This document shows positions 12,527 through 24,726 of a stretch of DNA of 25,685 nucleotides, piece by piece. A model generated the notes under the pieces. It made no database searches. It had not been told where the DNA came from and saw only the letters and a list, made by a program, of their open reading frames with translations. Origin of the DNA: Hondaea fermentalgiana. Taxonomy: Eukaryota > Sar > Bigyra > Thraustochytrida > Thraustochytriidae. Where the stretch lies: assembly GCA_014084085.1 (NCBI GenBank), contig NPFB01000224.1, positions 9,201-34,885 of the forward strand. Direction: 5' to 3'. The number at the start of each line of letters is the position of its first letter. Position 1 is the first letter of the stretch. The translations under genes and the position numbers were made by a program.

Positions 12527-13159
12527 TGGCACCCGCGTCCACTCTTTGCGCGTACAACAAGGCCAAGGAAGCCTCGTGGCTCGAAGCTCCTAGATAATCG
12601 CGCTCAAGGGCCTTGGCGTTCTGCTCGAGGCCTCGAGCGAGTCGCAGGGCCGCTTGCGGCTTTCAAGGTCACAAGACAAAAGACAAGTTGGGTGAGATGC
12701 GAGATACACATTAGATCACACACACGCACGCACAGAGGCAGGGAAAATGGCAAAGCACCAAACTCTTGCGTGCCGAGACAGACCAGCAGCGACGCGAAGC
12801 AGAGCGCATTCAACCGAGGAGAGCTTGAATCAAATTCATAGAAAACACGCGGATGACTTTACTCTCAACCTATCAGGCCGAATCTGCTCCTTCCCTCGCT
12901 GCACAACCGTGGCGTGTTGAAAGCCTTTTTCTAGGCCTACTACTACATCATAACCTTTGCATTTCCATCGTGCACGCCAGAAAGACGCGCTCATGGCCAG
13001 CCAGACAGCACGGCCTTGCTCTGTTCTGCCTCGGGGCCACGTTCTCGGGCTCGTCCGGGCTGGCCTCGTCGCGTCTGGTCTGCGTCGATTTTCCCTCGAA
13101 AACGCCGGGCGAACGGAGTTCGAGCAGGACGAGTCCCTCAACCCGGGCCGCCTGCCGAA
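12527..13159. other. Divergent region between HAD gene and PRL1, up to the gap
   Basis: No gene part can be assigned with confidence. Frames are open into the gap on both strands, but none of the peptides matches the N-terminus expected for a PRL1/PLRG1 protein (a VFRSLKRTHD-like segment). It probably contains the promoter and leader of PRL1 and possibly its first coding bases. A CA-rich stretch (ACACACACGCACGCACAGAG) lies near 12719. Confidence 0.4.
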
Positions 13160-13259
13160 NNNNNNNNNNNNNNNNNNNNNNNNNNNNNNNNNNNNNNNNN
13201 NNNNNNNNNNNNNNNNNNNNNNNNNNNNNNNNNNNNNNNNNNNNNNNNNNNNNNNNNNN
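13160..13259. other. Assembly gap of exactly 100 N
   Basis: One hundred consecutive N characters. A round 100 is the usual placeholder for a gap of unknown size, so distances and reading frame across it mean nothing. It removes the 5' part of the PRL1 gene. Confidence 0.99.
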
Positions 13260-14667
13260 CGGCGTCGGCCTCGCGGGTGGCGCCGGCGAGCTGCGCGCGG
13301 CCAGGGAGCGCCGCAAGCGCGTCAAGACCGCGACGGAGTACGCCGACATGGCCGTACTCGCGACCGCAGCAGCACGCCGCGATAAAGCGCAGCAGCAGCG
13401 TAAAGACGACCAACGCGAGGCGGCAGCAGCAGCAGCAGCAGCAGCAGCGGCTGACGCGAGTGCGAGCCTCTCGCGCCCGCTTGCGCTCGAGGACCAGAGC
13501 CAAAAGGACCCAGCAAGCGCACAAACCGAAGAAACGAGGCTCGTGGCCGTGGACCCCAAGAGCGCCAAACGCGAGCGCAATGACAGACTGCGAAGACTCG
13601 GTGCCGCAGACTTTGTCGAGCAAGAGTCGCGAGCGCTGCAAACGAGACGCAAAGCGCCAGAGCCCATCAAGCCGGAATGGCATGCCCCGTGGAAGTTGCA
13701 CAAGGTTCTCCCTGGACACCTTGGGTGGGTGCGATGCGTCGCTGTTGACCCCTCGAATCGATTCTTCTTCACTGGCTCTGCCGACAGGACCATCATTTGC
13801 TGGGACCTGGCCACAGGCGAGCGCAAACTCACGCTTACTGCACACTCTCATGGCGTGCGGGGGCTCGCCACCAGCGCAAAGTACCCCTATCTCTTTAGCG
13901 TTGGCGAAGACAAGACAGTCAAGTGCTGGGATCTCGAAACGAACCGCGTTGTCCGAGACTACCATGGCCATCTTCAGGGCGTCCACTGTGTTGCTATGCA
14001 TCCTACACTCGATGTTATCGTCACGGGCGGCCGGGACGCTGCTGCGCGCGTCTGGGACATTCGTACACGTAAAGAGGTGCATCTTCTTACGGGCCATGAA
14101 GACAGTGTGGAATCGCTCATTGTGCAGTCTGCTGATCCTCAGATCATAACGGGCTCCATGGACAAGACAATCAAACTTTGGGATCTTGCCGCGGGCAAGG
14201 TCCTCACTACGCTAACAAACCATAAAAAGGGAATTCGCGCACTCACGCGTAACCCGCGCGAATTCTCCTTTGCCTCTGGCGCCGCGGACTGCATCAAGAA
14301 ATGGCAATGCAAGGACGGCCGTTTCATGCTCAACATGCCAGGGCCAGGAGCGATCATCAACGCTCTCTCGGTCAACTCGAGCAATGTTCTCTTCTCGGGC
14401 GCCCAGGACGGCACAATGCAGTTCTGGGATTGGGCCAGTGGGCACTGCTTTCAGTCATTCCGAACAACGCCGCAGCCCGGGTCTCTCGATAGCGAAGCCT
14501 GTGTACTTGCGTCTGCGTTTGACATGACGGGCTCGCGACTTATTACGTGCGAAGCTGACAAGAGCGTCAAGATTTGGCGCCAAGACCGCGACGCCACAGA
14601 GGAAAGTTTCCCTCTTCAGTGGGATCGAGATGCTGCGGCCAAGGCTCTCTTGGACAATCGATACTGA
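13260..14667 (+). CDS. PRL1/PLRG1 (Prp46) spliceosomal WD40 protein, 5' partial
   Basis: A core component of the Prp19-associated (NineTeen) complex of the spliceosome, acting in the nucleus. The readable part has 468 residues. It begins in an Arg/Ala/Gln-rich linker with an eleven-alanine tract, then the diagnostic block [14 protein letters not shown] followed by [18 protein letters not shown], and seven WD40 repeats to the end (for example [55 protein letters not shown]). The C-terminal [10 protein letters not shown] and [13 protein letters not shown] are also typical, and [13 protein letters not shown] ends the protein as in animal and plant PRL1. The start codon is missing: the N-terminal conserved segment of the family lies in or beyond the gap. 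Codon reading starts at 13261. The WD40 part looks fully functional. Confidence 0.95.
13420..13452. repeat. Coding (GCA)n repeat: poly-alanine tract in PRL1
   Basis: A GCG(GCA)n run encodes about eleven consecutive alanines in the linker between the N-terminal region and the WD40 propeller. In another frame it reads as poly-Gln. A similar CAGCAGCAG lies 25 bases earlier. Confidence 0.8.
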
Positions 14668-15272: not shown

Positions 15273-17816
15273 CTATATCTCGTACTCTTTCATTTCCCAC
15301 GAGCCGCCGAGCGTTGGCGTAATCTCAATGAGCTTGTGGAGAGGGACCTTAATTTTCATGGCCTCTTCGACAGGGGCACCAAGAAAGTAGGCCAAGAGGA
15401 CCTGGATGCAGCTGACATGCGATACAATAAGACAGGGTGCCGTCTGCTGCTCAATTTCAATCAGCACGGGCTCGAGGCGCGTGACTAAGTCCAGATATGA
15501 TTCACCTCCGGGGAATCGATGCGTGTATGGATGGCGCTTCCAAGACTCGTAAAAGTCAGGATTGAGCTTTTGGATGGCGTCCATGGACAAACTGCCCAGC
15601 TCACCCTTGTTGAGAGGATTGAGCATGGGGCAGAGCTCGACGACCGTCGAACCATCAATCAAAGACTTGGCGATGTCCGCGGTCTGCTTGGCACGAGGCA
15701 ACGTTGAGCTGAGAAGTTTCATGACAGCTCCCCTCTGCCGCGTACCGTCTGCCTTGCGGACCTCGCGTCGCCGTTCCGAGTGGAAGATGCGTTCCGAGAG
15801 GCCGTCCGCACCAACGTCGACGAGGTTCGGCATCGACTTGAAGGCGCTGCCCAGAGGGTTCGAGATGTGCGCACCTTCACCAGCCTGCTCTTCCACAAAG
15901 GACTCGGCATCGTCGGCGTCCTCGTCATCGCGGACCCAAAGGGCCGTCTGAAGCCACCGCGCAAGTCGTTGCGCGAACTCGTGCCCGAGCTGGCTGAGCC
16001 CCGAGGCCTTTGACTCTGTAGATGGATCGAGAAAGTCAAACTCCGCGGGCCAGTGCTTCATGGAGGAGATGCGCGAGTCTTCGGCGAGACCTGCGCGCAC
16101 AAAGTAGATAGGCCGTAGACCCACGTGCAGAGACAACATGTAGGGAAGAATACTGCGCGCCAGACGACCGTAGATCTTGTTGGCCAGCATCTTGCTCGAC
16201 ATATTGTAAATCTTAATGTAGGATACATCCTCGTCCACGGGCTCGTACACCCTCTCATATGCCTCGATGCGTGCGCGGAGATCACTCAGGGCCTGGCGCT
16301 CATCCATGCCCATGAAATCCGGCGAATTGCGCACTTTTGATAATAGATTCTCCAAGAGAACTTCCTCATCATCGCAAATTACCTCAATGAAACACACGCT
16401 GGCAATGCCCTTGGCCTGGTCCACAATCCAGCGCCGCCGCTCAATTGTGCTGTTGGTCGCGTCGAAAATGCCTACAGCTGTTTGTTTGCTCTTTTGCAAA
16501 AAGTGCAACAGATCGCTCAGCGCTCGATTCGCAGCTTCTTGACGCACACGTGAGCCCTCCTCGTTGGACTTCTCGAAAAAGTTTGCATTGTCGTTGCCCG
16601 TGCTCTCCGTACTGTTTCGCCGCTCCCGGCGATACTTGCCAGCGTTGAAAATGCGCGCGCGACTGTTGCGCCAGCACAAAAAACGTTTGAGCTTGCGTGC
16701 GGTGAATGACTTGCCGCGAGCGGGAAGACCGACCATGACAATCACCAGCTTGCTGGCATCCTTTGTCAACGCACCACGCTCGTTCATGATCATGAGCGTG
16801 CGGCTTCGGCTCGTCTCGCGACTTCCATGGTAGTAGTCGCCGCCTCCCACGCTGTTACTGCTGCTGCCGACGGGCGTGAGACCCAAAGAGGCGGCAAAGG
16901 CAGGGCGCACAGGCAGCCCGCTCGATGACTTGACGCGCGCCATGATGCTAGCGCTAGAGGCCGGCCGTGGTGGTGGAGGAACAAAGACGCTCGGGCTGGC
17001 AGACTCGCCTTCCTCTTCGGGCAGACTGGCCGTCTCTTCCACAATAGTTGCGGCGGTCGAGGGGCTTCGCGCAAACGTTTGCGCTGCAGATTTCACGGAG
17101 AGAGCATCGTCTGTGACATCCGAAAGATAGTCTTCATCGCGCGTGGTCATGACCGTCTCGGCGAGACCGCCTGCCTTGAAGTTGCCCATAGTGCACGAGA
17201 GGACGTGCTCGACCTCCTCGACGCGAAGGCACACATTGACCCAGTTGTTGTCGGTATTCTTTACATCAAAAACGTTAAAGGCGCGGTCGCCGCGACTTCG
17301 GTTCACTTGCGCGAGAATTTTGATGCCTAGATCCACCTCGATCAGCGAGGCCACCTTGCCCAGGACTCCAGGCACGTTCTCATTCACGACGCAGAGACGC
17401 AGGGGCGCCGTTTCCCGGTAGATCTTGCCCGTGCTCGAGTTGAAGGCCCCCAGCGACGCGCTCCTTACGCCGGGAATCTGCTCCACCTCGGCGACGATGG
17501 CCGCGGTCTGGTCGTGCGCCACCTCGATATCGACCACCTGGAAAACGAGGTGTCCTCGGGCCTTGCACGTGTTCCCGACAATGTTGAGCCCCAGGGTCCC
17601 GATTCGGGTCGTCACCTCGGCCAGCAGGCCGGCGCGGTCCTCCTCCACGATACACAATCTTTGCACGCTCACGTGCGGCATTTCCGCGGAAAGTCCTCGC
17701 TCCAGAGGTTTCTCAAACATGGAGCTGCCCAGGTCGCTCGGCGAGCTCGCCAGGCCGGGCCGCGTCGGCGCCGAGAGCGACCGGCTGCTCCTGTTGCCGT
17801 CTTCCGCTGCGTCCAT
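15273..17816 (-). CDS. ACT-ACT-6-phosphofructo-2-kinase / degenerate fructose-2,6-bisphosphatase fusion
   Basis: The predicted protein has 847 residues. Two ACT domains come first: residues 50-122 (EEDRAGLLAEV, then LGLNIVGN) and 138-210 (NENVPGVLGKV, then GIKILAQV; the latter closely follows the ACT of SerA). A 140-residue Ser/Pro-rich linker follows. The 6PF2K domain (about 355-568) keeps Walker A GLPARGKS (Lys369), FNAGKYRR (390-397) and FDATNSTIERR (Asp452), so it should make fructose 2,6-bisphosphate from fructose 6-phosphate and ATP. The phosphatase domain (570-835) is recognisable by SSTLPRAKQTA, FPGGESYLDLVTRLEPV and LLAYFL, but the RHG motif reads VRAG (Ala575), the LNEID glutamate position is Pro734, the GRIGGDS segment is lost, and about 75 acidic/Ser-rich residues are inserted. 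His800 is kept. The start is the ATG in GCGACCATGG; upstream codons are open only from a GTG and translate a repeat. Family call certain; loss of phosphatase activity is inferred. Confidence 0.95.
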   Translation of the reverse strand: MDAAEDGNRSSRSLSAPTRPGLASSPSDLGSSMFEKPLERGLSAEMPHVSVQRLCIVEEDRAGLLAEVTTRIGTLGLNIVGNTCKARGHLVFQVVDIEVAHDQTAAIVAEVEQIPGVRSASLGAFNSSTGKIYRETAPLRLCVVNENVPGVLGKVASLIEVDLGIKILAQVNRSRGDRAFNVFDVKNTDNNWVNVCLRVEEVEHVLSCTMGNFKAGGLAETVMTTRDEDYLSDVTDDALSVKSAAQTFARSPSTAATIVEETASLPEEEGESASPSVFVPPPPRPASSASIMARVKSSSGLPVRPAFAASLGLTPVGSSSNSVGGGDYYHGSRETSRSRTLMIMNERGALTKDASKLVIVMVGLPARGKSFTARKLKRFLCWRNSRARIFNAGKYRRERRNSTESTGNDNANFFEKSNEEGSRVRQEAANRALSDLLHFLQKSKQTAVGIFDATNSTIERRRWIVDQAKGIASVCFIEVICDDEEVLLENLLSKVRNSPDFMGMDERQALSDLRARIEAYERVYEPVDEDVSYIKIYNMSSKMLANKIYGRLARSILPYMLSLHVGLRPIYFVRAGLAEDSRISSMKHWPAEFDFLDPSTESKASGLSQLGHEFAQRLARWLQTALWVRDDEDADDAESFVEEQAGEGAHISNPLGSAFKSMPNLVDVGADGLSERIFHSERRREVRKADGTRQRGAVMKLLSSTLPRAKQTADIAKSLIDGSTVVELCPMLNPLNKGELGSLSMDAIQKLNPDFYESWKRHPYTHRFPGGESYLDLVTRLEPVLIEIEQQTAPCLIVSHVSCIQVLLAYFLGAPVEEAMKIKVPLHKLIEITPTLGGSWEMKEYEI

Positions 17817-20849: not shown

Positions 20850-22193
20850 ATGCCGCTGCTTGGGACGCGTGCGGAGCGGATGAGAAAGAAGCGCAACACA
20901 TGGGCGCGTAATGCAAGGATGGCGGGCCCGATGGGCCTCGTGCTACTCGCGCTGGTTCTTGCGAGCGCTCCAACGCAAATTTTTGCGGAGAGCTCCGCAT
21001 TGGATGCGCAGTTTAGCCCTGGCGACGACCTCGCGGATGAGGTCGAGAAAGAAATTCGCAGGTTCGCACGTGAAGCTGCCGAGCGCGCAGACACTGAAGC
21101 GCGCGAGAAGCCCATCTTCAAAGATCGATCGACGCCGCCGTTATGGCAGGCCAACAGCACCGTGAGCACCTTTGCCGAGATACAGGACGCCCCTACCAAG
21201 CTTGCCGTGGAGGCCAAATCCGGACGCGTCTTTTTTGCTCCTCATGCCTTTTCGGCACCTGATCGCGAGCAGGGGCAGGGATTCCTCAGCGAATGGGTGG
21301 AGTCCAAACAACAGGCAATCGCTTTCCCGTCCGAGGAGTTTCAGGATGAGATTCGCCAGGGCATCGCAGCACTTGCCATGGACAACATTCGTGGATGGCT
21401 TCTCGTTCTCGACGCTAACCCGTACATTTATGCGGGGCCATCCGTTCTCTTTGTCGTAGAAGTTGCCTCTGGAAACGTATTACATCGCTTCGAGCTTGAT
21501 GAACAGCTCGTAGGGGAGATCACACCAACGAACATGGTTATCTGTCCTCGTTCCCAATTTGTCTTTATTGCAAACAACGGAGCGCATAGCGGCGTCCCGA
21601 GTCTCCTCGTGATTGATATTCACGTGTGGAAGGTTCGAAAACTTCTCGAGGACCACGAGGCCGTGCAACAGCGAGATGTTCTGCCCATTCTTAACAACAG
21701 GGAGCCGATCGAATACCCTTGGCGCTTCGGTTTGACATCACTCGCAATCGATGCGCGTAACAAACGTCTGATTCTGGGATCAATGTTTGGCGATCTGCTC
21801 TACAGCATCCCTCTGCGCACCCTTCAGGCTGCGACTCGCTCGCTGCCCGAAGACGAGCTCTGGGCACAGGTGCAGATTCTTGGACCCAAGACGGTTTCGG
21901 ACGCGATCGATGTGGATCCTGCCACGGGTAATATTTATGTGACGGACTTTGAGCATTCGGCGTTGTCGCTCATCGAGCCTGCCCAGGGCTGGTCTGTGAT
22001 GACCCTTGTCCAAAGCGAAGATCTTCTTCGGTGGCCATCAGACCTCGTCATTGTCAATGGACATGCCTACGTTGCATGTTCCGCGCTCGACAAGATCATG
22101 GAAGGGGACCACAAGATACGCGCAGGGCCGTTTCATATTCTGCGAATGCCTCTGTATAAGGAGGCTCCAGTGCCTGTTCATGATGAGCTGTAA
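20850..22193 (+). CDS. Secreted major royal jelly protein/yellow-like beta-propeller protein
   Basis: The predicted protein has 447 residues. A basic start (RMRKKRNTWARNARM) leads into the hydrophobic segment GLVLLALVLASAP and a likely cleavage after IFA, so it should enter the secretory pathway. After a charged 60-residue stretch with a possible glycosylation site (NST), the rest matches the MRJP/yellow plan: RGWLLVLDANP (the W-x-L-D block), LFVVEVASGNVLHRFEL, SLLVIDIHVWKVRKLL, LTSLAIDARNKRLILGSM with LYSIPLRTLQ, SDAIDVDPATGNIYVTDFE, and WPSDLVIVNGHAYVACSAL near the end. The function of non-insect members is unknown; insect relatives act in cuticle pigmentation or as food proteins. The first ATG at 20850 is used here, but ATGs at residues 11, 24 and 28 are possible; the one at residue 24 gives the most compact signal peptide. 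Family assignment is by pattern and fairly secure. Confidence 0.8.
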   Translation: MPLLGTRAERMRKKRNTWARNARMAGPMGLVLLALVLASAPTQIFAESSALDAQFSPGDDLADEVEKEIRRFAREAAERADTEAREKPIFKDRSTPPLWQANSTVSTFAEIQDAPTKLAVEAKSGRVFFAPHAFSAPDREQGQGFLSEWVESKQQAIAFPSEEFQDEIRQGIAALAMDNIRGWLLVLDANPYIYAGPSVLFVVEVASGNVLHRFELDEQLVGEITPTNMVICPRSQFVFIANNGAHSGVPSLLVIDIHVWKVRKLLEDHEAVQQRDVLPILNNREPIEYPWRFGLTSLAIDARNKRLILGSMFGDLLYSIPLRTLQAATRSLPEDELWAQVQILGPKTVSDAIDVDPATGNIYVTDFEHSALSLIEPAQGWSVMTLVQSEDLLRWPSDLVIVNGHAYVACSALDKIMEGDHKIRAGPFHILRMPLYKEAPVPVHDEL

Positions 22194-22378: not shown

Positions 22379-23272
22379 CTACAGATTTGAAGCGACGCGC
22401 CAGTGCTCGGGCTGGGTTCCGCTCACCTGACGCGACTTGAACTTCCACAGATTACGGACGAATGTTTCTTTGTACTCGTCCTCCAGATTGTCGTGACCGG
22501 CAAAAACTTCCTCCATGAGCTCGTCCGGAATGGAATGGAAACTGCAGTCGCTGCTGGCGTAGTGGCATGAGATCGCCTTGCGGAAGCCCTGCGTCGCGTT
22601 TCGCCCGCTGCCGTGAATGAGCAGAGGATGAAAGAAGACGCAGTCGCCCTTCTCCATCTCCAGGAAGACGCGTTTATCCATGTTGATTTCATCCTTGACG
22701 CCGTGATATAGTTTGTTGACGCCACCCTCCCATTCAGGGTTTCCATGCGTCAAAAGCGAACCCTTGTGCGATCCAGGAATGACGGCCAGGCAGCCATTGT
22801 CGCGATGAATGTGCTCCATCGCTACCCACGTGGCGATGATCTTATTCGCTGGGCGAAGCGGAAAGTAGTACAAGTCCTGGTGCATGGGGTGCCGCGAAGT
22901 GCCAGAGCCAAGATCAGGCGGCTTGTTGATGAGCATTGTATGAATCGAGCGGACATTGTCGCCTGTGAATTTCTTCACATAGTCGAGCATTCTCTCATTT
23001 TTACAGAACTCGAATAGGACTGGTTCGTCCTGAAAGTCCTGGATCTTGGTCACGTCCTTTGTAGACTTGATCGTGCCCTTGCGTCGCGCCAGCTCAATGT
23101 CCTTCATGACCAGCATCGAGCTCGGGCGTTCTGCCTTGCCATTGCACAGATCCTCGAACCTCTCGAGAAAGACGTTCAACTCTTCGTTGCTGAAAAGCTT
23201 GCGCACCACGAAGAAGCCGTCCTCCTCATACTTTCTTCGCAGCTCCGCCAAGGTCGCCTCGTTGGTGGCCAT
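22379..23272 (-). CDS. Phytanoyl-CoA dioxygenase (PhyH) family protein, copy 1
   Basis: An Fe(II)/2-oxoglutarate-dependent oxygenase of 297 residues. The metal triad is visible as His131-x-Asp133 (MHQDLYYF) and His220 (LLIHGSGRN), and Arg231 in GFRKAIS is placed to bind 2-oxoglutarate. DGFFVVRKL (about 18-26) and NKPPDLGSGTSRHP precede the first metal ligand; GCLAVIPGSHKG is the family's central block. These are kept as in human PHYH, including an ending in -NL (VASNL here), but the terminus is not a standard peroxisomal SKL and no PTS2 is evident, so location is open. Substrate could be phytanoyl-CoA or another acyl-CoA or small molecule. It starts at the ATG in GGCCACCATG-type context on the reverse strand (CAT at 23270-23272). 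It lies head-to-tail with its paralogue, which is about two-thirds or more identical by eye, with 554 bases between them. Codon use is less GC-biased than in copy 2. Confidence 0.93.
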   Translation of the reverse strand: MATNEATLAELRRKYEEDGFFVVRKLFSNEELNVFLERFEDLCNGKAERPSSMLVMKDIELARRKGTIKSTKDVTKIQDFQDEPVLFEFCKNERMLDYVKKFTGDNVRSIHTMLINKPPDLGSGTSRHPMHQDLYYFPLRPANKIIATWVAMEHIHRDNGCLAVIPGSHKGSLLTHGNPEWEGGVNKLYHGVKDEINMDKRVFLEMEKGDCVFFHPLLIHGSGRNATQGFRKAISCHYASSDCSFHSIPDELMEEVFAGHDNLEDEYKETFVRNLWKFKSRQVSGTQPEHWRVASNL

Positions 23273-23826: not shown

Positions 23827-24726
23827 TCACAGGCTCGACTGGACATTCCAGTGCGGCAGCTGCTCGCCACGGACCTGTCGCGAGCGAAGAGCGAAGCTCT
23901 CGCGCACAAGCTGCTCCTGCATTTCACGAGGGATCTCGTCTTGGCCCGCGAAAAAGTCGTCCATGAGCTCTTGCGGAACGTGGTCAAACTCGCACTCGGC
24001 GCTAGCGTAATGCGCTGAGATAGCCTTGCGGAAACCCTTGGTCGAGTTACGGCCGCTGCCGTGAATGAGCAGAGGGTGAAAGAAGACGCAGTCGCCCGCC
24101 TCCATCTCCAGGTAGACGCGCTTCTCCATGTCGATATCGCCCTTGACGCCGTGGTACAGCTTGTTGACGCCGCCCTCCCAATCGGGGTTGCCATGCGTCA
24201 GGAGCGGGCCCTTGTGCGATCCCGGGATGACGGCCAGGCAGCCATTGTCGCGATGAATGTGCTCCATTGCCACCCACGTGGCGATGATCTTATCCGCTGG
24301 CCGGATCGGAAAGTAGTGCAGGTCCTGGTGCATGGGGTGCCGCGAGGTGCCGGAGCCAAGATCAGGTGGCTTGTTGATGAGCATGTTGTGGATCGTTCGC
24401 ACCGTCGAGCTGCCCACCATGGCCTCCACGTAGTCGAGCATCTTGTCGTGCTTGCAGAACTCGAACATGACCGGGTCGTCCTGGAAGTCCTGAATCTTGG
24501 TCACATCCTTGCTGGACTTGATCGTGCCCTTGCGGCGCGCAATTTCAATGTCCTTCATCACCGTCATGCCCTGGGCGCGCTCGACCTTGCCGGCGCAGAT
24601 ATCTTCGAAGCGGTCGAGCCAAACCTGGAGCTCCTCCGGCTTGAGCAGCTTCTTCACCACGAAGAACCCGTCGCGCTCATACTGCTCCCGGAGCTTGGCC
24701 ACCTCCGCCTCGTCGAGCTTGGGCAT
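23827..24726 (-). CDS. Phytanoyl-CoA dioxygenase (PhyH) family protein, copy 2
   Basis: A 299-residue paralogue of the neighbouring PhyH gene, with all oxygenase residues in place: His133-x-Asp135 (MHQDLHYF), His222 (LLIHGSGRN) and Arg233 (GFRKAIS). It differs mainly at the N-terminus (MPKLDEAEVAKLREQYERDG), in the region after DYVEAMVGSSTVRTIH (one residue longer) and at the C-terminus (LPHWNVQSSL). The C-terminus is again not a standard peroxisomal SKL. It starts at the ATG in GCAAGGATGC; upstream in-frame codons are open only from TTG. Third positions are more C/G-rich than in copy 1, suggesting higher expression or a different age in the genome. The order and orientation show a tandem duplication. 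Activity on phytanoyl-CoA specifically is not provable from sequence. Confidence 0.93.
   Translation of the reverse strand: MPKLDEAEVAKLREQYERDGFFVVKKLLKPEELQVWLDRFEDICAGKVERAQGMTVMKDIEIARRKGTIKSSKDVTKIQDFQDDPVMFEFCKHDKMLDYVEAMVGSSTVRTIHNMLINKPPDLGSGTSRHPMHQDLHYFPIRPADKIIATWVAMEHIHRDNGCLAVIPGSHKGPLLTHGNPDWEGGVNKLYHGVKGDIDMEKRVYLEMEAGDCVFFHPLLIHGSGRNSTKGFRKAISAHYASAECEFDHVPQELMDDFFAGQDEIPREMQEQLVRESFALRSRQVRGEQLPHWNVQSSL

What the first reader, a model, noticed from the sequence alone, without database searches (positions are those of the whole stretch)
15273..17816. ACT-ACT domains fused to PFK-2/FBPase-2: a possible amino-acid sensor on fructose-2,6-bisphosphate synthesis
Seen: one open frame carries two ACT-type domains, a disordered linker and a complete 6PF2K/FBPase2 pair, with no stop or frame change between them. 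Known: animal PFKFB has short regulatory N-termini and plant F2KP has a starch-binding N-terminal domain; ACT domains bind amino acids in enzymes such as SerA. ACT2 keeps the NENxPGVL loop that in E. coli SerA (HENRPGVL) holds a serine-binding Asn, while the second ligand Asn (LGLNI) is kept in ACT1 rather than ACT2 (GIKI). Inference: the tandem could form one composite amino-acid site and set glycolytic flux by nitrogen or serine status. I know of no described ACT-PFKFB fusion.
Basis: partly seen in the sequence, partly recalled or inferred. Interest (0 to 1): 0.85.

Follow-up and report, generated by a model that had tools for sequence, protein, structure and literature searches.

The report
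Amino-acid-sensor fused to PFK-2 kinase
A protist, probably a thraustochytrid, has an enzyme that should make the glycolysis-activating signal fructose-2,6-bisphosphate fused to two amino-acid-sensor-like domains, while the half that would destroy the signal has lost key catalytic residues, so sugar burning may be tied directly to amino-acid supply.

Summary
The 847-residue frame (15273-17816, minus strand) is real. It holds two ACT domains, a disordered linker, a 6PF2K kinase domain that keeps 32 of 32 conserved positions, and an FBPase-2 domain. Its RHG nucleophile reads RAG (A575) and the acid Glu reads P734, so the protein is probably a kinase only. The same genome holds a second 6PF2K protein with the opposite pattern: checked phosphatase residues intact, 7 of 32 conserved kinase positions changed. 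Sixteen ACT-bearing proteins, the window's included, form one clade in a kinase tree, inside a 71-row clade without the nucleophile His; the fusion is inherited, not an artefact, and probably arose once. The ACT pair is closest to phosphoglycerate dehydrogenase (SerA). Of the two serine-type sites that a SerA-like ACT pair would form, the window keeps one Asn pair (N147 of ACT2, N78 of ACT1) and has lost the other (D60/K166); its four closest complete relatives share this, while six distant relatives keep both sites (one with Asp at one position). The composite-site idea is therefore supported by residues. Ligand, direction of control and pairing geometry are untested. No description of an ACT-PFK-2 turned up in the library searched.

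The parts
15273..17816 (-). ACT-ACT-6PF2K-pseudoFBPase-2 gene, 847 aa, single frame, stop TAG
17448..17675 (-). ACT1, residues 48-123
   Evidence: Pfam ACT E 7.2e-8 over its cut-off; bab-bab in AF2 models
17181..17408 (-). ACT2, residues 137-212
   Evidence: bab-bab in AF2 models; own-PGDH ACT matches residues 102-189; no separate Pfam stretch here
17583..17585 (-). N78 of ACT1, equivalent of E. coli SerA Asn364 (kept half of site B)
17376..17378 (-). N147 of ACT2, equivalent of E. coli SerA Asn346 (kept half of site B)
17637..17639 (-). D60 of ACT1 at the Asn346 position (site A, changed)
17319..17321 (-). K166 of ACT2 at the Asn364 position (site A, lost)
16812..17180 (-). disordered linker, residues 213-335
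   Evidence: pLDDT under 50 at 214-327; 22-33% identity to P0004-P0006 and 59% to P0002, against 67-69% and 89% for the kinase
16113..16811 (-). 6-phosphofructo-2-kinase domain with its N-terminal helix, residues 336-568
   Evidence: Pfam 353-565 E 6.5e-63; 32 of 32 conserved positions
15276..16112 (-). FBPase-2 (histidine phosphatase) domain, residues 569-847, predicted inactive
16089..16097 (-). R574-A575-G576 in place of the catalytic RHG
15615..15617 (-). P734 in place of the catalytic acid Glu
15735..15920 (-). insert, residues 633-694, within the FBPase-2 domain, mostly predicted disordered
   Evidence: pLDDT under 50 at 634-692

Best explanation
The gene encodes a monofunctional 6-phosphofructo-2-kinase, that is, a fructose-2,6-bisphosphate synthase. 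Its N-terminal ACT pair, of SerA type, most likely binds one small amino acid, serine being the first candidate, at a single site made by the ACT2 loop (N147) and the start of the second ACT1 strand (N78). Binding would change the ACT-kinase arrangement and so set the rate of F2,6BP synthesis; by analogy with SerA I lean to inhibition when the amino acid is plentiful. The domain that would hydrolyse F2,6BP is catalytically dead. Breakdown would fall to the second, ACT-less 6PF2K/FBPase-2 protein of the same genome, whose checked phosphatase residues are intact and whose kinase residues are partly changed. The likely target is the genome's single PFK-1 gene, of animal type. Shown: architecture, its inheritance, retention and loss of motif residues, and the presence of the other genes. 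Inferred: every activity, the ligand, its sign, and the pairing of the two ACT domains.
For: Architecture and fold. Same architecture in the Aurantiochytrium-named transcriptome protein P0002, in P0005 (also held as a transcript) and in proteins of other sources. One ACT clade in the kinase tree (16 rows, SH-aLRT 96), inside a 71-row clade (99) with no His at the nucleophile column. Kinase: 32 of 32 columns conserved in at least 95% of 119 rows. Phosphatase H to A and E to P; 25 of 39 conserved columns kept against 33-39 in 37 live rows. Paralog: phosphatase 34 of 39 and all 15 invariant positions kept; kinase 25 of 32, where the 119 other rows score 30-32. SerA as nearest ACT kin. SerA serine contacts (His344, Asn346, Asn364'): PMC6300728 section 9. 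Site pattern. ACT domains better conserved than the linker. PFK-1 matches muscle-type PFK over residues 10-739, E 4e-202.
Against: No ligand, activity or expression data for this gene. PDB hits of the ACT segment are weak (E 0.023-0.19) and the ACT tree is poorly resolved (5 of 32 inner branches starred). Position 344 (His in E. coli, Tyr in M. tuberculosis) is Asn here, so the carboxylate contact is uncertain. Foldseek and VIA-align do not superpose the two ACT domains together on known ACT pairs (rmsd 10 A or more), so a SerA-like pair within one chain is not shown. Fold comparison does not single out SerA: AHAS, RelA and NikR score as high or higher. Loss of the FBPase-2 nucleophile is older than the ACT fusion by the tree, so it is not part of what the ACT domains brought. 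Asp, the residue of D60, is a serine ligand at that position in the M. tuberculosis enzyme, so site A is lost mainly on its K166 side. Two relatives, P0008 and P0009, do not keep site B's pair. Some ACT domains, mammalian PGDH's among them, no longer bind serine (PMC6300728).
Confidence: 0.5

Rival explanations
1. The ACT pair is only an oligomerisation module. It holds PFK-2 subunits together, as ACT domains do in some proteins, and no longer binds a ligand.
For: One of the two expected sites has lost its residues in the window and its four closest complete relatives; the review passages seen say ACT domains of mammalian PGDH no longer bind serine; position 344 is not His or Tyr in the window.
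Against: Both Asn of site B are kept in those same five proteins and in 5 of 6 of the distant group, with Asp, as in the M. tuberculosis enzyme, in the sixth. A pure dimer contact gives no reason for that.
Confidence: 0.25
2. The ACT pair senses a different ligand (branched-chain amino acid, glycine, threonine, or a non-amino-acid metabolite) rather than serine.
For: AHAS, RelA and NikR score as high as SerA in fold comparison; for the relative P0047 Pfam's AHAS-type ACT model scores best among ACT models.
Against: Sequence searches lead to PGDH, and the own PGDH carries the same N-x-N-V-P-G loop.
Confidence: 0.3
3. The protein is still bifunctional, through another residue taking over the phosphatase chemistry.
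For: The second active-site His (H800) and the Arg of the SSTLPR motif are kept; the domain is conserved among close relatives (65-92% identity, residues 695-847, four comparisons).
Against: Both the nucleophile His and the acid Glu are gone; of 15 positions that are invariant in the 37 live rows, five are changed (at A575, P734, W759, Q790, Q805).
Confidence: 0.05
4. The frame joins two separate genes or is an assembly fusion.
For: No RNA-seq of this organism was available; 105 of 121 proteins scanned (the own paralog among them) show no ACT pair.
Against: The same order of domains in transcriptome-derived proteins (P0002, P0005) and in proteins of other sources; one open frame with no stop.
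Confidence: 0.02

Closest known systems
Animal PFKFB1-4 (bifunctional 6PF2K/FBPase-2)
   Same: Same order of 6PF2K and histidine-phosphatase domains; best PDB hits PFKFB2, E 1.7e-63
   Different: ACT pair and long linker at the N-terminus; RHG is RAG and the acid Glu is Pro
PFK-2-like proteins of oomycetes, diatoms and dinoflagellates
   Same: Share the lost FBPase-2 nucleophile (mostly RAG or RPG) and lie in the same 71-row clade
   Different: None of the 55 rows of that clade outside the ACT group matches the ACT-pair profile
Plant F2KP and yeast Pfk26 (recalled, not tested)
   Same: PFK-2 with its own N-terminal regulatory part (plant), or with a lost FBPase-2 His (yeast)
   Different: The N-terminal part is not an ACT pair
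D-3-phosphoglycerate dehydrogenase (SerA) ACT domain
   Same: Closest ACT by sequence; serine-contact Asn pair kept at one of two sites
   Different: Two ACT domains in one chain, N-terminal rather than C-terminal, on a kinase of another pathway step
SerB2 of Mycobacterium avium, with a serine-bound ACT structure
   Same: Matched by Foldseek over the length of the ACT segment (5jlp, E 2.5e-6)
   Different: No sequence kinship shown; superposition poor (rmsd 10.3)

Membership tests
6-phosphofructo-2-kinase (PF01591) | profile match over its cut-off | tested here: met
   212.5 bits against 27
6-phosphofructo-2-kinase (PF01591) | conserved catalytic-core residues (Walker A GLPARGK, DATN, and others) | tested here: met
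   32 of 32 columns conserved in at least 95% of 119 rows
6-phosphofructo-2-kinase (PF01591) | 2-kinase activity | not testable with these tools
   needs purified protein
FBPase-2, active histidine phosphatase | nucleophile His in RHG | tested here: not met
   A575
FBPase-2, active histidine phosphatase | catalytic acid Glu | tested here: not met
   P734
FBPase-2, active histidine phosphatase | second active-site His | tested here: met
   H800
ACT domain, ACT1 | profile match and beta-alpha-beta-beta-alpha-beta fold | tested here: met
ACT domain, ACT2 | Pfam profile match over cut-off | tested here: not met
   no separate Pfam stretch in this protein
ACT domain, ACT2 | beta-alpha-beta-beta-alpha-beta fold | tested here: met
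   AF2 model, strands and helices at 95-166 of the segment
SerA-type serine site | Asn346 of one ACT with Asn364' of its partner | tested here: met
   site B N147 + N78; site A (D60 + K166) not kept
SerA-type serine site | carboxylate ligand at position 344 (His in E. coli, Tyr in M. tuberculosis) | tested here: inconclusive
   N145 in ACT2, as in the own PGDH; the role of Asn is unknown
SerA-type serine site | side-by-side ACT pair with the site at the interface | tested here: inconclusive
   no coordinates to measure; superpositions over both domains poor
Bifunctional PFKFB | catalytic residues of both activities in one chain | tested here: not met
   kinase residues kept, phosphatase residues lost; activities not assayed

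The most novel reading that the evidence does not exclude
A direct amino-acid gate on the fructose-2,6-bisphosphate signal: an ACT pair captured from serine biosynthesis, trimmed in this lineage from two ligand sites to one, controls a kinase-only PFK-2, while a second protein with a decayed kinase and a live phosphatase removes the signal. The classic bifunctional enzyme would thus be split between two proteins, with amino-acid supply read only by the synthesis arm, in oil-producing marine protists.
Probability: 0.35. Interest if true: 0.87.

Novelty: new variant of a known kind. Interest (0 to 1): 0.72.

Why it matters
F2,6BP is a main switch of glycolysis in animals, fungi and plants (recalled). 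Known inputs, as I recall them, are hormones, phosphorylation and sugar or energy metabolites; I know of no PFK-2 with a built-in amino-acid sensor. Here the sensor type, a definite candidate site with four named residues, and a natural control set (relatives with both sites, with one, or with the other) make the idea directly testable. Thraustochytrids make oils when nitrogen is short (recalled), so a nitrogen-to-glycolysis link would also matter in practice.

Tried and rejected
Rejected: an active FBPase-2 half (H and E lost); a chance or assembly fusion. Led nowhere: region searches with the ACT pair alone returned four proteins each, the query included, all ACT-PFK-2, so no free-standing relative or donor was found. 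The genome-contig scan with the own PGDH gave two Ruminococcus loci. The 35-row ACT-domain tree is too short to resolve origin: PGDH rows fall among tandem ACT rows, AHAS and PDT rows sit on long branches, and ACT1 and ACT2 do not separate cleanly. Foldseek and VIA-align confirm the ACT fold but not the family: AHAS, RelA, NikR and SerA all score high; a family that is not listed there is not excluded. Papers: ACT domain with 6-phosphofructo-2-kinase, one paper, unrelated by title and abstract start; with phosphofructokinase-2, none; with PFKFB, three, unrelated by title and abstract start; PGDH with Asn346/Asn364, none; PFK26 with PFK27, none. Of the listings I opened four papers. PMC6300728: passages and all of section 9. 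PMC5825098: passages; it aligns two diatom PFK-2 proteins with human PFKFB2 and discusses the kinase; the passages seen mention no lost phosphatase residue, and its alignment figure was not seen. PMC7698632: one passage; a probable 6PF2K gene is up 7.12-fold in the cold in the thraustochytrid Oblongichytrium; which gene is unknown. PMC11793985: passages, general background. The taxon id 87120 given in the MMETSP title resolves to a fungus in NCBI taxonomy, so 'Aurantiochytrium' rests on the cut-off record title alone, and 'thraustochytrid' for the window's unnamed organism is inferred from 77% identity to that record.

Rows dropped: only 120 of 708 hits are listed, so all family counts concern these 120 plus the own paralog. 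The kinase tree used 116 of 121 rows: P0066, P0077, P0116 and P0120 failed my segment cut and I left out P0106, an odd fusion. 'Dead' in that tree includes two rows with a gap at the nucleophile column (P0056, P0070). One search held three empty rows (P0077, P0116, P0120) through an indexing slip; one search repeats it with them mended (119 rows plus paralog, P0066 still out) and gives the same scores for window and paralog.

Full report
What is there. The minus-strand frame 15273-17816 encodes 847 residues from ATG to TAG without interruption, in a 36.0-Mb, 238-contig genome. Pfam finds ACT (59-115), 6PF2K (353-565) and His_Phos_1 (698-843), all over their cut-offs. The second ACT is not found by Pfam in this protein, but the AlphaFold2 model of residues 45-222, made with 15 relatives (three of them incomplete there), has mean pLDDT 91.2 and the beta-alpha-beta-beta-alpha-beta order twice; the full-length model agrees and gives very low confidence at 214-327 and 634-692, as expected of disorder.

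The phosphatase half is a pseudo-enzyme by sequence. The RHG motif, which carries the nucleophile His, reads RAG (A575), and the acid Glu reads P734; that these two residues are the nucleophile and the acid is recalled knowledge of PFKFB. Of 39 columns conserved in at least 85% of 37 proteins with an intact nucleophile, the window keeps 25, the own paralog 34, and the live rows 33-39; the seven rows of the window's own group keep 24-25 and seven distant ACT-PFK-2 rows only 12-16. The kinase half is intact by the same kind of count: 32 of 32 columns.

The second gene. The own genome shows two 6PF2K matches. The other (L002 1201-3369, 722 aa) has no ACT hit, keeps all 15 positions that are invariant in the 37 live phosphatases, the nucleophile His335, Glu487 and His553 among them, and scores only 25 of 32 on the conserved kinase columns, where the 119 other rows score 30-32. 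Its changes include the N and G of the FNxGxYRR motif. So the two halves of the ancestral bifunctional enzyme look divided between two proteins. This is inference from residues; the paralog's branch is long (2.08) and its kinase may still work.

Relatives. A profile of the ACT pair, built from 13 complete tandems, matches 16 of 121 proteins: those 13 and P0003, P0007 and P0052, which lack ACT1 in whole or part. In a kinase-domain tree of 116 rows these 16 are one side of a branch (SH-aLRT 96), inside a 71-row branch (99) in which no row has His at the nucleophile column. Oomycete, diatom and dinoflagellate proteins are among the 71 by their source names, and so are proteins of Amorphochlora and Balamuthia. 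In all, 37 of the 120 listed hits keep the His. The simplest reading is that FBPase-2 was lost first and the ACT pair was gained once afterwards; the tree is a quick one and unrooted, so this needs caution. Three ACT groups appear: seven rows with the window, called thraustochytrid-type here after the Aurantiochytrium-named P0002; two rows (P0008, P0009); and seven distant rows (P0029, P0047, P0049, P0052, P0053, P0060, P0061), in which Pfam finds no phosphatase domain.

Origin of the ACT pair. The own-genome search with the whole protein hits itself, the paralog, and, over residues 102-189, the ACT of the own D-3-phosphoglycerate dehydrogenase (34% identity, E 7.2e-7). The best ACT-bearing NCBIfam model is PRK11790 phosphoglycerate dehydrogenase (E 1.2e-7). 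In the PDB all six sequence hits at E up to 1 are PGDH, five over ACT1 and one over ACT2, each weak. The ACT tree cannot resolve the matter. SerA kinship is likely, not proven.

The ligand site. In E. coli PGDH serine is held by His344 and Asn346 of one ACT and Asn364' of its partner; in M. tuberculosis by Tyr461, Asp463 and Asn481' (PMC6300728, section 9). If the two ACT domains pair in that way they give two such sites: A = ACT1 loop + ACT2 strand start, B = ACT2 loop + ACT1 strand start. Among 13 complete tandems: the five thraustochytrid-type rows have N-N at site B and no Asn at either place of site A (D/K, D/K, Q/A, C/T, Q/R). The six distant complete rows have N-N at both, except one Asp at the loop of site B. 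P0009 has N-N at A and N/R at B; P0008 has L/K at A and N/K at B. The two members of site A agree in Asn state in 13 of 13 rows and those of site B in 10 of 13, against 7 and 6 of 13 for the two positions inside ACT1 and inside ACT2. The rows are related, so this is at most a few independent events, but it is what a cross-domain site predicts. Position 344 is Asn in the window's ACT2 (N145), as in the own PGDH. Against it: the models do not superpose over both ACT domains with any listed ACT pair at under 10 A, and I had no coordinates to measure the N78-N147 distance.

Target. The own genome shows one PFK-1 gene, with two PFK domains in one frame, most like muscle-type PFK (E 4e-202). Reading the printed alignment, the positions that I recall as the F2,6BP site of human PFKM (R471, 528-532, R566, E629, R655, H661, R735) are kept, with TISNN for TVSNN, while the MGG at 573-575 reads QGR and 662-664 differ in two of three. 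The site list is from memory.

Mechanism and confidence. Near certain: an inherited ACT-ACT-PFK-2 protein. Very likely: kinase only. More likely than not: the ACT pair binds a small amino acid at one site. Perhaps one in three: that it is serine. The sign is a guess; feedback inhibition by a plentiful amino acid would let glycolysis rise when nitrogen is short, which would fit oil storage in these organisms (recalled).

Novelty. No paper describing an ACT-PFK-2 turned up in three searches of the open-licence library; subscription papers are not covered. PFK-2 with added N-terminal regulatory parts and PFK-2 with a dead phosphatase are both known kinds (recalled), so this is a new variant of a known kind.

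Noticed in passing
L002 1201-3369 (+), G000:C171: Second 6PF2K/FBPase-2 gene with intact phosphatase residues and 7 of 32 conserved kinase columns changed.
   Followed up: partly
proteins without ACT in the 71-row clade (such as P0013, P0015, P0023): A large clade of PFK-2 proteins, with oomycete, diatom and dinoflagellate members, in which the FBPase-2 nucleophile His is replaced, mostly by Ala or Pro, also by Ser, Thr or Leu.
   Followed up: partly
L018 1-2244 (-), G000:C113: One open frame that reads by eye as prephenate dehydratase, prephenate dehydrogenase and the start of an aminotransferase; only its ACT was matched to a profile, below the cut-off.
   Followed up: no
window 20850-22193 (+): Protein matching the Major royal jelly protein family (PF03022, E 7.5e-8), unusual outside animals as far as I recall.
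   Followed up: no
window 22379-23272 and 23827-24726 (-): Two neighbouring, similar PhyH (phytanoyl-CoA dioxygenase) genes, probably a tandem duplication.
   Followed up: no
window 12853-14667 (+): Frame that reads by eye as a WD-repeat protein and contains a run read as X, a masked or unknown stretch.
   Followed up: no
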